A stretch of 64,000 bases of DNA from Phaeocystidibacter luteus. Lineage in GTDB: Bacteria > Bacteroidota > Bacteroidia > Flavobacteriales > Schleiferiaceae. Shown here one piece after another: positions 30,971 through 33,151 of the stretch. The position numbers and the translations under genes are program-made. The DNA lies in assembly GCF_008933115.1 (NCBI RefSeq), contig NZ_WBVO01000005.1:1-64000 (forward strand). Direction: 5' to 3'. Positions within the stretch are counted from its first letter, which is position 1. Every line of letters starts with the position of its first letter. The notes below the pieces were generated by a model. It made no database searches. It worked only from the letters and a program-made list of their open reading frames with translations, and was not told where the DNA came from.

Positions 30971-31026
30971 GGTCTATCTCAACATCGAACTGACTTATAT
31001 CATTCGCACAGGGTTGGCGAGTGAAG

Positions 31027-31034
31027 TACCTTTG
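31027..31034 (+). promoter_or_regulatory. TAnnTTTG -7 element before acyl-CoA thioesterase
   Basis: TACCTTTG matches the Bacteroidota -7 consensus, 17 bases before the ATG at 31052. No good TTG element was found at the expected distance upstream. Confidence 0.4.
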
Positions 31035-31051
31035 TATCAAAGCAAAGGAAC

Positions 31052-31444
31052 ATGAGATTTCACACCAGAAAATGGATCAAACCCGAAGACCTCAACCCGA
31101 ACGGGACGCTCTTCGGTGGTAGCCTCCTCCGCTGGATCGACGAAGAGGCGGCTATCTATGCCCACATTCAACTCGACAATGTCCGCGTAGTCACGAAGTA
31201 CATTTCCGAAATAAACTTCATATCCTCCGCCGTACAAGGCGATATTATCGAGCTTGGTATCATCGCAACCGACTTCGGCAAAACGTCAATCACCCTCGCT
31301 GTTGAGGTGCGAAACAAGCTCACACAAAAGACCATCCTCAAAATCGATAAAATGGTCTTCGTAAACCTAAACGAAGAGGGTGTGCCTACGCCGCATGGGA
31401 AGACGGAGATAGAGAGGGTGGTGGATAGGATTCAGGATAAATAA
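31052..31444 (+). CDS. acyl-CoA thioesterase, hotdog fold
   Basis: Second hotdog thioesterase in the window, same group as the gene at 7188. Marks are KPEDLNPNGTLFGGSLLRWIDEEAAIYA (the Asn, the LFGG turn and the DEE helix), VVTKYISEINFISSAVQGDIIELG and KMVFVNLNEEG. It hydrolyses acyl-CoA thioesters in the cytoplasm; chain-length preference is unknown. The protein is complete at 130 residues. The two copies differ strongly outside the motifs, so they are old paralogues rather than a recent duplication. The 3' end is followed by hairpin-rich DNA and a terminator at 31552. Confidence 0.88.
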   Translation: MRFHTRKWIKPEDLNPNGTLFGGSLLRWIDEEAAIYAHIQLDNVRVVTKYISEINFISSAVQGDIIELGIIATDFGKTSITLAVEVRNKLTQKTILKIDKMVFVNLNEEGVPTPHGKTEIERVVDRIQDK

Positions 31445-31445
31445 G

Positions 31446-31496
31446 TTCGCCTCCGGCGAAAAGTCAGCCATAGGCTGAAAGGTCGCTAATCGCGAC
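31446..31496. repeat. cluster of three mini-palindromes
   Basis: TTCGCC-tcc-GGCGAA (31446-31460), TCAGCC-ata-GGCTGA (31464-31478) and GTCGC-taatc-GCGAC (31482-31496), back to back just after the thioesterase stop. Two of them have a six-base stem and a three-base loop, like the array that starts at 31597. Confidence 0.8.
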
Positions 31497-31551
31497 AAGG
31501 CTCGCTCCGCTCGCAAGATAGCGTACGGAAATAAAGCCGATCTATAAATCT

Positions 31552-31585
31552 AAAGAGCCCAACAGGAATACTGCTGGGCTCTTTT
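31552..31585 (+). terminator. intrinsic terminator after acyl-CoA thioesterase
   Basis: Ten-base stem AAAGAGCCCA / TGGGCTCTTT, with CAG/CTG extending pairing within the loop and a T-run following. It lies about 107 bases downstream of the stop, past the palindrome cluster. Confidence 0.8.
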
Positions 31586-31596
31586 AGTTATGCTAC

Positions 31597-32136
31597 TGTC
31601 GGAAACCGACATTCTTTATTGCGAAGAAATCCTTACTACGAAGTAGTCTTGTTGCAAAGCAACCTTGCCACGCAGTGGCCTTGCTGCATCGTAGCCTTAT
31701 TGCGAAGCAATCCTTACTACGAAGTAGTCTTGTTGCAAAGCAACCTTGCCACGCAGTGGCCTTGCTGCCCCGCAGCCTTATTGCGAAGCAATCCTTACTA
31801 CGAAGTGGTCTTGTTGCTAAGCAACCTTAGCCACGCAGTGGCCTTGCTGCCCCGCAGCCTTATTGCGAAGCAATCCTTACTACGAAGTAGTCTTGTTGCA
31901 AAGCAACCTTGCCACGCAGTGGCCTTGCTGCCCCGCAGCCTTATTGCGAAGCAATCCTTACTACGAAGTAGTCTTGTTGCAAAGCAACCTTGCCACGCAA
32001 TAGCCTTACTGCCCCGCAGCCTTATTGCGAAGCAATTCTTACTACGAAGTAGTCTTGTTGCAAAGCAACCTTGCCACGCAGTGGCCTTGCTGCCCCGCAG
32101 CCTTATTGCGAAGCAATTCTCATCGCCTCCGGCGAT
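31597..32136. repeat. array of 81-base repeats made of mini-palindromes
   Basis: Six full units start at 31618, 31699, 31780, 31862, 31943 and 32024, with a partial seventh at 32105. The period is 81 (82 once). Each unit is five 13-base hairpins, 5-base stem and 3-base loop, separated by CTT or CCTT: ATTGC-gaa-GCAAT, ACTAC-gaa-GTAGT, GTTGC-aaa-GCAAC, GCCAC-gca-GTGGC, GCTGC-ccc-GCAGC. The array is bounded by TGTCGG-aaa-CCGACA (31597-31611) and ATCGCC-tcc-GGCGAT (32122-32136). It sits between convergent genes. Because 81 is divisible by three, long open frames exist on both strands, but they are by-products. Confidence 0.95.
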
Positions 32137-32137
32137 C

Positions 32138-32635
32138 CTACTCCACAATCACCTCCACCGTCGCACTCATCTCCTCACCATAGCTCTGGTGAAGACCGTT
32201 TGCGAACTGCATAGTAAGTGTGTATGCTCCTGGCTCTAGTTCGAGGTCGGTTTCCGTTTGGCCACCACCGTAGTGGATGTGCTGCTCGTCGGCCGGAACT
32301 ACATCTCCCTTAGAAATGTGACCCTTGTTGATGATGATGTGATGGTGACCCGTACCCACAACTAGTTCTCCAGCTGGGTTGACAGTCATTCCCTCCACAC
32401 CCATCTCTACGTGGAGTGGAGAAGAAACGGTAGATCCGTCTTCAATATTTACAAAGTATACACGCGCACCCTCTGGAACTGCCAAGTTCTCATCTTCTGG
32501 CATAGTGATCTCTTCCTCCTCCTGTGACATTTCTGTCTCCATTTCAGGAGCAGTAGTATCGTCCGACTTACTCTCAGAGTTGCAAGCGGTAAATACCAAA
32601 ATGGATGATGCAAATAGAAGTTTCGTGATTTTCAT
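32138..32635 (-). CDS. DUF4399 domain lipoprotein
   Basis: Lipoprotein signal MKITKLLFASSILVFTACNS (Cys at 18), then an acidic linker (METEMSQEEEEITMPEDEN) and a DUF4399-type domain: VYFVNIEDGSTVSSPLHVEMGVEGM, TGHHHIIINKG, VPADEQHIHYGGGQTETDLELEPGAYTLTMQFANG. The His-rich motifs and strand pattern are those of this family, whose function is unknown; the Ig-like domain may bind a metal or a ligand. The 3' end is only 1 base from the last palindrome of the repeat array. It lies 9 bases downstream of the biotin carrier gene on the same strand. Confidence 0.85.
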   Translation of the reverse strand: MKITKLLFASSILVFTACNSESKSDDTTAPEMETEMSQEEEEITMPEDENLAVPEGARVYFVNIEDGSTVSSPLHVEMGVEGMTVNPAGELVVGTGHHHIIINKGHISKGDVVPADEQHIHYGGGQTETDLELEPGAYTLTMQFANGLHQSYGEEMSATVEVIVE

Positions 32636-32644
32636 AGTGCAGTG

Positions 32645-33151
32645 TTATTCGAATGAAATTAGAATTTGATTTTTCTCAACGGCTTGTCCCTTCTCGACCG
32701 AAATGCCCTTGATTTTTCCTGCTGTTGGCGACTTCAAAACGTTTTCCATTTTCATGGCCTCAAGAACCAACAATGGATCACCTTCCTCTATCTCGTCTCC
32801 AATCGAAACGCGAATATCAAGTACCAAACCCGGCATCGGCGCCTTAACCTCGCCAACTTTCTGTACCAAAGCGTCGCTCAATCCCATCTTGTCAAGAAGG
32901 ATGTCAATGTCATCCTGCATCGAAAGGGTATGCGATATGCCGTTCACATTGATAACAGCCGTTTTGTCGGTTTTGTTGAATTCGTGAATCTCCACTTCGT
33001 AGGATCCATCGCCGTAGCGGACGTTAAATCGGTTCGAATCTTGACGAACCACATCGAGTGAATATTCCTGGTCATTGACCTTACCTTCTGACGGATTGTG
33101 AGCATTTGGCTCTACCGTATAGGTTTTATCGTTGGATTGAATCTTCAGCAT
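32645..33151 (-). CDS. biotin carboxyl carrier protein (BCCP domain), stand-alone
   Basis: A 168-residue protein whose C-terminal ~75 residues are a biotinyl domain: VKAPMPGLVLDIRVSIGDEIEEGDPLLVLEAMKMENVLKSPTAGKIKGI. The biotinylated Lys is residue 134 in EAMKMEN. The N-terminal ~85 residues are a separate domain typical of the carrier of acyl-CoA carboxylases (propionyl-CoA or oxaloacetate-decarboxylase type). In vivo it shuttles carboxyl groups between biotin carboxylase and carboxyltransferase. Neither partner gene is adjacent here; the flanking genes are a lipoprotein and, divergently, an aminopeptidase, so the partner subunits must be elsewhere. Confidence 0.88.
   Translation of the reverse strand: MLKIQSNDKTYTVEPNAHNPSEGKVNDQEYSLDVVRQDSNRFNVRYGDGSYEVEIHEFNKTDKTAVINVNGISHTLSMQDDIDILLDKMGLSDALVQKVGEVKAPMPGLVLDIRVSIGDEIEEGDPLLVLEAMKMENVLKSPTAGKIKGISVEKGQAVEKNQILISFE

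What the first reader, a model, noticed from the sequence alone, without database searches (positions are those of the whole stretch)
31597..32136. Six-unit 81-base array built entirely from tiny palindromes
Seen: each unit consists of five 13-base hairpins (ATTGC/GCAAT, ACTAC/GTAGT, GTTGC/GCAAC, GCCAC/GTGGC, GCTGC/GCAGC) joined by CTT or CCTT. About thirty palindromes lie in 490 bases, and pairing is mostly preserved: a unit-3 substitution becomes a wobble pair and a unit-1 change gives another, although two hairpins are broken. This is not a CRISPR (no spacers) and not a known transposon. Inference: a structure-forming array, perhaps a transcription buffer between convergent genes, a protein-binding array, or an RNA with serial hairpins.
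Basis: partly seen in the sequence, partly recalled or inferred. Interest (0 to 1): 0.75.

Follow-up and report, generated by a model that had tools for sequence, protein, structure and literature searches.

The report
Arrays of tiny single-strand DNA hairpins
One bacterial genome carries, at the edges of many genes, rows of tiny DNA hairpins whose letters differ from place to place while their spacing and shape stay the same, which points to folded single-stranded DNA as the thing being kept, although nobody has yet shown what it does.

Summary
The array is real: 31 serial 13-base hairpins (26 perfect) at 31618-32117, joined by CTT/CCTT. It belongs to a genome-wide family: 19 own-genome stretches gave 235 distinct hairpins. 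Model R2 matched 1 of 60 genomes at E<=0.05, the own one, and 3 of 395 in a shallow phylum search, two of which showed no array. Between arrays the stems change freely, but these stay: the CTT linker, a C-G closing pair and, on the CTT strand, GNA triloops (92 against 13 TNC; 19 of 19 stretches), GNNA tetraloops (23 against 1; third base pyrimidine in 21 of 23, unlike RNA GNRA) and tandem GA/GA mismatches (30 against 0 TC/TC). These are motifs of stable single-stranded DNA hairpins; C-GNA-G is what N4 phage promoters need for supercoil-driven extrusion (PMC4496689). Orientation follows gene edges, not gene strand: AAG array left, CTT array right in 10 of 11 gaps holding both. Best reading: rows of one-strand hairpins, extruded under negative supercoiling, marking gene borders. 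The structural part is well supported; the function is inferred. REP-like spread is the main rival. Transcription could not be tested.

The parts
31052..31444 (+). ORF of 130 aa left of the element (thioesterase-like by recall; no family search was run)
   Evidence: the ORF listing
31446..31514 (+). left half-array: four hairpins joined by AAG on the plus strand, starting one base after the TAA stop codon; the fourth (GCTCGC TCC GCTCGC) holds a tandem TC/TC, that is GA/GA on the other strand
31552..31585 (.). long hairpin AAAGAGCCC..GGGCTCTTTT between the half-arrays, terminator-like by eye in both directions; not called by the terminator scan
   Evidence: scan lists three other sites, among them 31597-31611 (+) and 31460-31446 (-)
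31597..31611 (.). hairpin TGTCGG AAA CCGACA just inside the main array, of another kind
31618..32117 (+). main array (right half): 31 hairpins of 13 bases, order ATTGC, ACTAC, GTTGC, GCCAC, GCTGC, joined by CTT/CCTT on the plus strand (AAG on the minus strand); 26 perfect
32122..32136 (.). outermost hairpin ATCGCC TCC GGCGAT, next to the stop codon of the minus-strand ORF
32138..32635 (-). ORF of 165 aa right of the element
   Evidence: orthologues in 12 of 36 other genomes; the one in congener G002 (L026) shows no such array behind it on reading

Best explanation
The array is one of a genome-wide family of serial DNA mini-hairpins in which the folded form of one strand (the strand that reads CTT between hairpins), not the letter sequence, is what is kept. 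Shown: fixed CTT linker; stems that vary freely but pair; C-G closing pair; GNA/GNNA loops and tandem GA/GA mismatches on the CTT strand; AAG half-array at the left gene edge and CTT half-array at the right one, whatever the gene strands. Inferred from the N4 phage promoter precedent: under negative supercoiling the CTT-strand hairpins extrude as single-stranded DNA while the other strand stays unstructured. An RNA polymerase that leaves either neighbouring gene, sense or antisense, would have these hairpins in its template strand, so the paired half-arrays would act as torsion-sensitive borders that hinder transcription entering the gap, or as landing sites for a hairpin-binding protein. Arrays lengthen by tandem duplication of blocks of hairpins.
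For: Linkers tallied without requiring any linker: CTT 169 and CCTT 30 of 347. Distinct hairpins per stretch: GNA 92, TNC 13 of 185 triloops, GNA>TNC in 19 of 19 stretches; GNNA 23, TNNC 1 of 60 tetraloops, third base C or T in 21 of 23; 2x2 internal loops GA/GA 30, TC/TC 0 of 58, GA/GA in 14 of 19 stretches. Control, isolated hairpins in 340 kb of the same genome: GNA 18, TNC 32 of 378; GNNA 28, TNNC 36 of 407; GA/GA 56, TC/TC 37 of 3514. C-GNA-G 57, C-TNC-G 7 of 165 triloops. Wobbles on the CTT strand: G.T 24, A.C 9; stretches 11 for, 3 against, 5 ties. Double changes inside arrays: L118 C-G 8, T-A 5, T.G 1, C.A 2; L072 G-C 9, A-T 4, none mixed. [quoted passage not shown] Orientation AAG left, CTT right in 10 of 11 gaps with both.
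Against: No expression, supercoiling or binding data. ViennaRNA energies barely separate the strands, and do so under RNA tables too (DNA -3.07 against -2.98, RNA -4.75 against -4.47 kcal/mol; CTT-favouring mean in 13 and 14 of 19 stretches). Whole-array DNA folds mix single hairpins with longer pairings and give the AAG strand the lower energy (-107.7 against -104.3), though the CTT strand departs more from its shuffles (z -7.5 against -4.8). In L118 wobbles show no strand preference (T.G 4, C.A 4 over two pairs); in L072 two pairs have C.A 5 and 4; in L022 C.A and A.C are common. In the window array substitutions do not favour pairing. 50 of 185 triloops and 36 of 60 tetraloops fit neither class. 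One gap (C1:460k) alternates AAG-CTT-AAG-CTT. Most stretches were found with models trained on this family, which may favour similar loops. The border function rests on analogy.
Confidence: 0.42

Rival explanations
1. REP/REPIN-like selfish repeats: each CTT-hairpin is read as single-stranded DNA by a transposase-like (for example HUH/Y1) enzyme that recognises shape and a short tag, and spreads or amplifies in gaps between genes until coding sequence stops it. The single-strand signature then reflects recognition by the enzyme, not use by the host.
For: Intergenic, multi-copy, head-head layout of tags as in REP dimers (PMC3733652 passages); arrays stop near the stop codon at 14 of 17 ORF ends; three Y1 transposase genes in the genome; confined to one species among those searched.
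Against: No consensus stem; the three Y1 genes are flanked by other palindromic repeats and have no CTT-type array beside them; Y1 genes occur in 12 of 24 relatives, none of which matched R2. No empty site was examined.
Confidence: 0.3
2. RNA function: the arrays are 3' UTR or antisense RNAs with serial hairpins that stabilise messages or end transcription.
For: At 14 of 17 ORF ends the array starts within about 10 bases of the stop codon; RNA folds of both window arrays beat shuffles (z -5.5 and -4.9); the small energy edge of the CTT strand exists under RNA tables too.
Against: The signature is on the CTT strand, antisense at gene ends; tetraloops are GNYA, not GNRA (21 of 23); arrays beside ORF starts have the same layout; no Rfam family reached its gathering score.
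Confidence: 0.1
3. Neutral mutation process: replication slippage and template switching at hairpins make and perfect the palindromes, without use or recognition.
For: Blocks are tandemly duplicated (L118 and L071); the window array's own substitutions show no pairing bias; perfect palindromes are what template switching would give (established idea, recalled).
Against: Template switching should repair mismatches, yet GA/GA internal mismatches recur with different stems in 14 of 19 stretches, with no TC/TC; it predicts neither the fixed CTT linker nor the layout by gene edge.
Confidence: 0.13

Closest known systems
REP / BIME / REPIN elements (GTAG- and CGTC-tagged palindromes, RAYT-associated)
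   Same: short intergenic palindromes with a short unpaired tag, mostly behind genes, many copies, head-head dimers (PMC3733652: abstract and passages; PMC12306157: passages)
Phage N4 virion RNA polymerase promoters
   Same: small hairpin with a three-base loop closed by C-G, loop G..A, stable on one strand, sheared G:A, extruded at physiological negative supercoiling (PMC4496689: passages)
   Different: single promoter hairpins with conserved stem bases in a phage; here long arrays in a bacterial chromosome with free stems and no known polymerase
Double-hairpin elements of chytrid mitochondrial DNA (recalled; one search listed no paper with the term)
   Same: hairpin elements with conserved loops and variable but paired stems (recalled)
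   Different: organellar, paired hairpins and not CTT-linked rows; not compared here
Intergenic TAACTGA direct repeats of Beggiatoaceae (PMC4679880: start of abstract in the listings only)
   Same: many intergenic short-unit repeat sets in one genome
   Different: direct repeats of a fixed 7-base word, not hairpins

Membership tests
REP elements | common consensus motif (definition in PMC12306157, passage) | tested here: not met
   107 distinct perfect 5' stems among 235 distinct hairpins; of the 5 pair positions in 49 hairpins of 5-3-5 form each holds all four Watson-Crick pair types, though C-G dominates next to the loop (42 of 49)
REP elements | unpaired GTAG or CGTC motif at one end (PMC3733652) | tested here: not met
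   linkers are CTT 169 and CCTT 30 of 347
REP elements | extragenic palindromes in many copies | tested here: met
   a few chance-like detector hits lie inside ORFs
REP elements | a linked RAYT (Y1) transposase flanked by the same repeat | tested here: not met
   three Y1 genes, no CTT-type array in the loci L038-L040 around them
N4-type extruding hairpins | C-G closing pair with G..A triloop on one strand | tested here: met
   C-GNA-G 57 against C-TNC-G 7 of 165 triloops; most hairpins have other loops
N4-type extruding hairpins | extrusion in supercoiled DNA | not testable with these tools
   needs chemical or nuclease probing
N4-type extruding hairpins | cognate virion RNA polymerase | not tested
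   no search for it was made
CRISPR array | unique spacers between repeats | tested here: not met
   linkers of 3-4 bases only
Known structured RNAs (Rfam 15) | match at the family's gathering score | tested here: not met
   window 31000-32700: two matches, mir-644 23.5 bits (gathering 96) and Pseudomon-Rho 23.5 (gathering 45)

The most novel reading that the evidence does not exclude
A class of bacterial DNA element defined by a single-stranded fold alone: a code of GNA/GNNA loops, tandem GA mismatches and CTT spacers on one strand, free in sequence, set as facing pairs of half-arrays at gene borders, which extrudes with supercoiling and is read by a dedicated hairpin-binding protein, so that the chromosome carries a physical torsion-sensing border at many genes.
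Probability: 0.25. Interest if true: 0.92.

Novelty: new variant of a known kind. Interest (0 to 1): 0.78.

Why it matters
Selection on the fold of single-stranded DNA, as opposed to RNA or double-stranded sites, is rarely visible in a chromosome. Here more than two hundred hairpins with unrelated stems share loops and mismatches known from stable DNA mini-hairpins, on one strand. If they extrude in the cell they are a natural, countable sensor of local supercoiling at gene borders; if they spread by a hairpin-reading enzyme they show a REP-like system that recognises shape rather than sequence. Either outcome is directly testable by DNA probing.

Tried and rejected
CRISPR, known RNA families and plain slippage were considered and set aside (reasons in the rivals and the membership test). 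A 3' UTR RNA role was my first idea, after seeing that both window arrays read AAG behind their genes; it weakened when arrays beside ORF starts showed the same layout. A first impression that wobbles favour the AAG strand did not survive counting.

BLAST of the 540 bases found nothing in phages or plasmids and matched 1 of 60 genomes, the own one. A hairpin pattern that matches 14 of 122 loci held at the time, all own-genome and from three places, matched 0 stretches in genome contigs and 0 in viral contigs (the own genome may be left out of those collections). The phylum search scored only 14 candidates per genome and is weak; in its two foreign hits (L120, L121) the chain detector found nothing, though L120 holds a short CTT-containing tandem repeat. 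Reverse transcriptase PF00078 was absent from the own genome.

Sequence-free chain detection in 320 kb of two congeners gave 4 chains, 0 of them with AAG/CTT linkers. With the CTT tag required, the congeners gave 4 chance-like chains of three hairpins, and 340 kb of own stretches taken without regard to arrays gave 6, against 0-4 for eight other tags; 3 of the 6 belong to real arrays by eye. So arrays are sparse: three places in those 340 kb (L010 twice, L013/L014). Dropped rows: L078 was fetched and left out because reading showed no array; L013/L014 were not among the 19 stretches; detector hits inside ORFs (window 5191, L077 1777, L114 792, L119 6676) were left out of the placement count but not removed from the hairpin statistics. 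Alignments A1, A2 and A5 came out shifted and were not used for models. One search timed out and was repeated without its file search.

Full report
Observation. The array is there as described. Tandem Repeats Finder reports period 81, 6.2 copies, 31616-32117. Read unit by unit there are 31 hairpins of 13 bases at 31618-32117, 26 of them perfect, joined by CTT, CCTT, once TCTT and once CTTA. A further hairpin (32122-32136) ends one base before the stop codon of the minus-strand ORF 32138-32635. The open frames through the array (206 aa plus, 116 aa minus) are what 81 being a multiple of three allows and are not evidence of genes.

A second array in the window. One base behind the stop codon of the plus-strand ORF 31052-31444 lie four hairpins joined by AAG (31446-31514). 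The main array, read on the minus strand, also has AAG linkers. So both genes run into hairpin-AAG-hairpin rows, with a long hairpin (31552-31585), terminator-like by eye, between them. The terminator scan did not call that hairpin; it called 31597-31611 (+), 31460-31446 (-) and one site inside the ORF, a number close to its shuffles (3 against a mean of 2.4).

A genome-wide family. BLAST found further loci at low identity; they hold rows of different hairpins with the same linker. A covariance model of three hairpins (R1) had 41 matches in the own genome at E<=10, best 3.9e-24; among the other 39 genomes of that search the best E-value was 0.0013. A model rebuilt from 49 hits (R2) matched 1 of 60 genomes at E<=0.05, the own one, with 63 matches, 91 at E<=1. 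Neither of the two congeners matched. In a phylum sample 3 of 395 genomes matched at E<=0.01: the own one and two in which the chain detector found no array; only 14 candidates per genome were scored there. Both models remember sequence, so rows of other sequence could be missed. A sequence-free detector on 320 kb of the two congeners found 4 chains, none with AAG/CTT linkers.

Anatomy. Statistics rest on 19 own-genome stretches with arrays: the window, 17 found through BLAST or the models, and L010, which came from stretches taken without regard to arrays. One further fetched stretch (L078) held no array and was left out. A detector that asks for CTT-like linkers found 74 segments with 389 hairpins in 231,591 bases; order-2 shuffles gave 4, 0 and 2 segments. 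With no linker required, linkers were CTT 169 and CCTT 30 of 347. There are 235 distinct hairpins with 107 distinct perfect stems.

One strand carries a structural signature. All hairpins were oriented so that the linker reads CTT. Counting each distinct hairpin once per stretch, triloops are GNA 92, ANA 22, TNC 13, TNT 8, other 50; GNA exceeds TNC in 19 of 19 stretches. Tetraloops are GNNA 23, TNNC 1, other 36; the third base of GNNA is C 12, T 9, A 1, G 1, which does not fit the RNA tetraloop GNRA. 2x2 internal loops are GA/GA 30, TC/TC 0, other 28, with GA/GA in 14 of 19 stretches. In isolated hairpins of 340 kb of the same genome GNA is 18 and TNC 32 of 378, GNNA 28 and TNNC 36 of 407, GA/GA 56 and TC/TC 37 of 3514 (a few array hairpins of L010 are in this control). 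C-GNA-G makes 57 of 165 distinct triloops and C-TNC-G 7. GNA loops with a sheared G.A pair, and AAA loops, are described for single-stranded DNA mini-hairpins in PMC6479982 and its reference titles (passages); that d(cGNNAg) and tandem sheared GA are stable in DNA is recalled. Wobbles on the CTT strand are G.T 24, A.C 9; by stretch 11 for, 3 against, 5 ties.

Pairing is kept through change, with exceptions. Within single arrays the same pair appears as C-G 8, T-A 5, T.G 1, C.A 2 (L118); as T-A 7, C-G 3, T.G 3, C.A 2 (L118, another pair); as G-C 9, A-T 4 with no mixed state (L072). Against this, two other pairs of L072 show C-G 10 with C.A 5 and C-G 12 with C.A 4, and in L022 two pairs show C.A 3 of 8 and A.C 5 of 8. 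In the window array 6 of 310 stem bases and 3 of 93 loop bases differ from consensus, none compensated.

Placement. Of 11 gene gaps in which the detector found both orientations, 10 have the AAG array on the left and the CTT array on the right, whatever the strands of the genes; the eleventh (C1:460k) alternates AAG-CTT-AAG-CTT (ORFs by a mechanical rule, detector hits inside ORFs left out). So each half-array starts with AAG at its gene. At 14 of 17 ORF ends read by eye the array starts within about 10 bases of the stop codon, five times with AAG made by TAA-G; at one more (L071:4210) a hairpin overlaps the stop codon, and at two it does not come close. Beside ORF starts it keeps roughly 25 to 250 bases away (starts assigned by eye, L113 left out as unclear). 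Contig C6 begins inside an array and C3 within 75 bases of one, so the assembly may miss some.

What it is. The constant features describe the fold of one DNA strand. The N4 virion RNA polymerase promoter is the best precedent: the C-G closing pair and the G..A of a three-base loop are required for extrusion of a small hairpin, which happens at physiological supercoiling; the template-strand loop resists single-strand probes while the other strand's does not, and SSB melts the latter (PMC4496689, passages). I therefore propose that the CTT strand extrudes as a row of mini-hairpins. Because the CTT strand is the template for a polymerase that leaves either gene, the pair of half-arrays would be a torsion-sensitive border. 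That last step is inference.

Rivals. A REP/REPIN-like selfish origin explains the head-head layout and the stop at coding borders, but the genome's three Y1 transposase genes carry other repeats, and Y1 genes occur in 12 of 24 relatives, none of which matched R2. RNA function fits the stop-codon placement only. A neutral process should erase tandem GA/GA mismatches.

Limits. ViennaRNA energies give the CTT strand a small edge under both RNA and DNA tables, with the mean in its favour in 14 and 13 of 19 stretches, so they do not decide between DNA and RNA; the tetraloop bases and the placement do most of that work. Whole-array DNA folds mix single hairpins with longer pairings. Most stretches were found with models trained on this family, which may favour similar loops; the unselected L010 shows GNA 3, TNC 0 and GA/GA 3. 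Ten searches of the open-access library listed no report of such arrays by title or start of abstract; subscription journals are not covered.

Kind. It works like an extruding DNA hairpin of the N4 type, multiplied. It fails tested defining features of REP elements (common consensus, GTAG/CGTC tag, linked transposase) and is not filed as one. I rate it a new variant of the broad kind 'intergenic palindromic repeats'; the bolder reading is in the section on the most novel reading.

Noticed in passing
L038, L039, L040 (own genome C23:163k, C11:6k, C1:17k): Three Y1 transposase genes (PF01797), each flanked on both sides by repeated palindromic units of its own kind (for example with GGGCTTTAGCCC in L040); RAYT-like by recall.
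   Followed up: partly
L013:19852 to L014:281 (own genome C1:179.85-180.28k): Hairpins with AAG linkers next to GGGCTTTAGCCC-type palindromes, present twice in near-identical blocks; may link the two repeat families.
   Followed up: no
L116:3170-3600 and L075:120-215 (own genome): Repeated words such as CTCTGTG and TCTGTGTGAGG next to hairpin arrays, a further intergenic repeat type.
   Followed up: no
L026 (congener G002), behind the orthologue of the 32138-32635 ORF: Repeated AGGAACGC/AGGAGCGC-like words in place of the hairpin array.
   Followed up: no
starts of contigs G000:C6 and G000:C3: C6 begins inside a hairpin array and C3 within 75 bases of one, so the assembly may break at such arrays.
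   Followed up: partly
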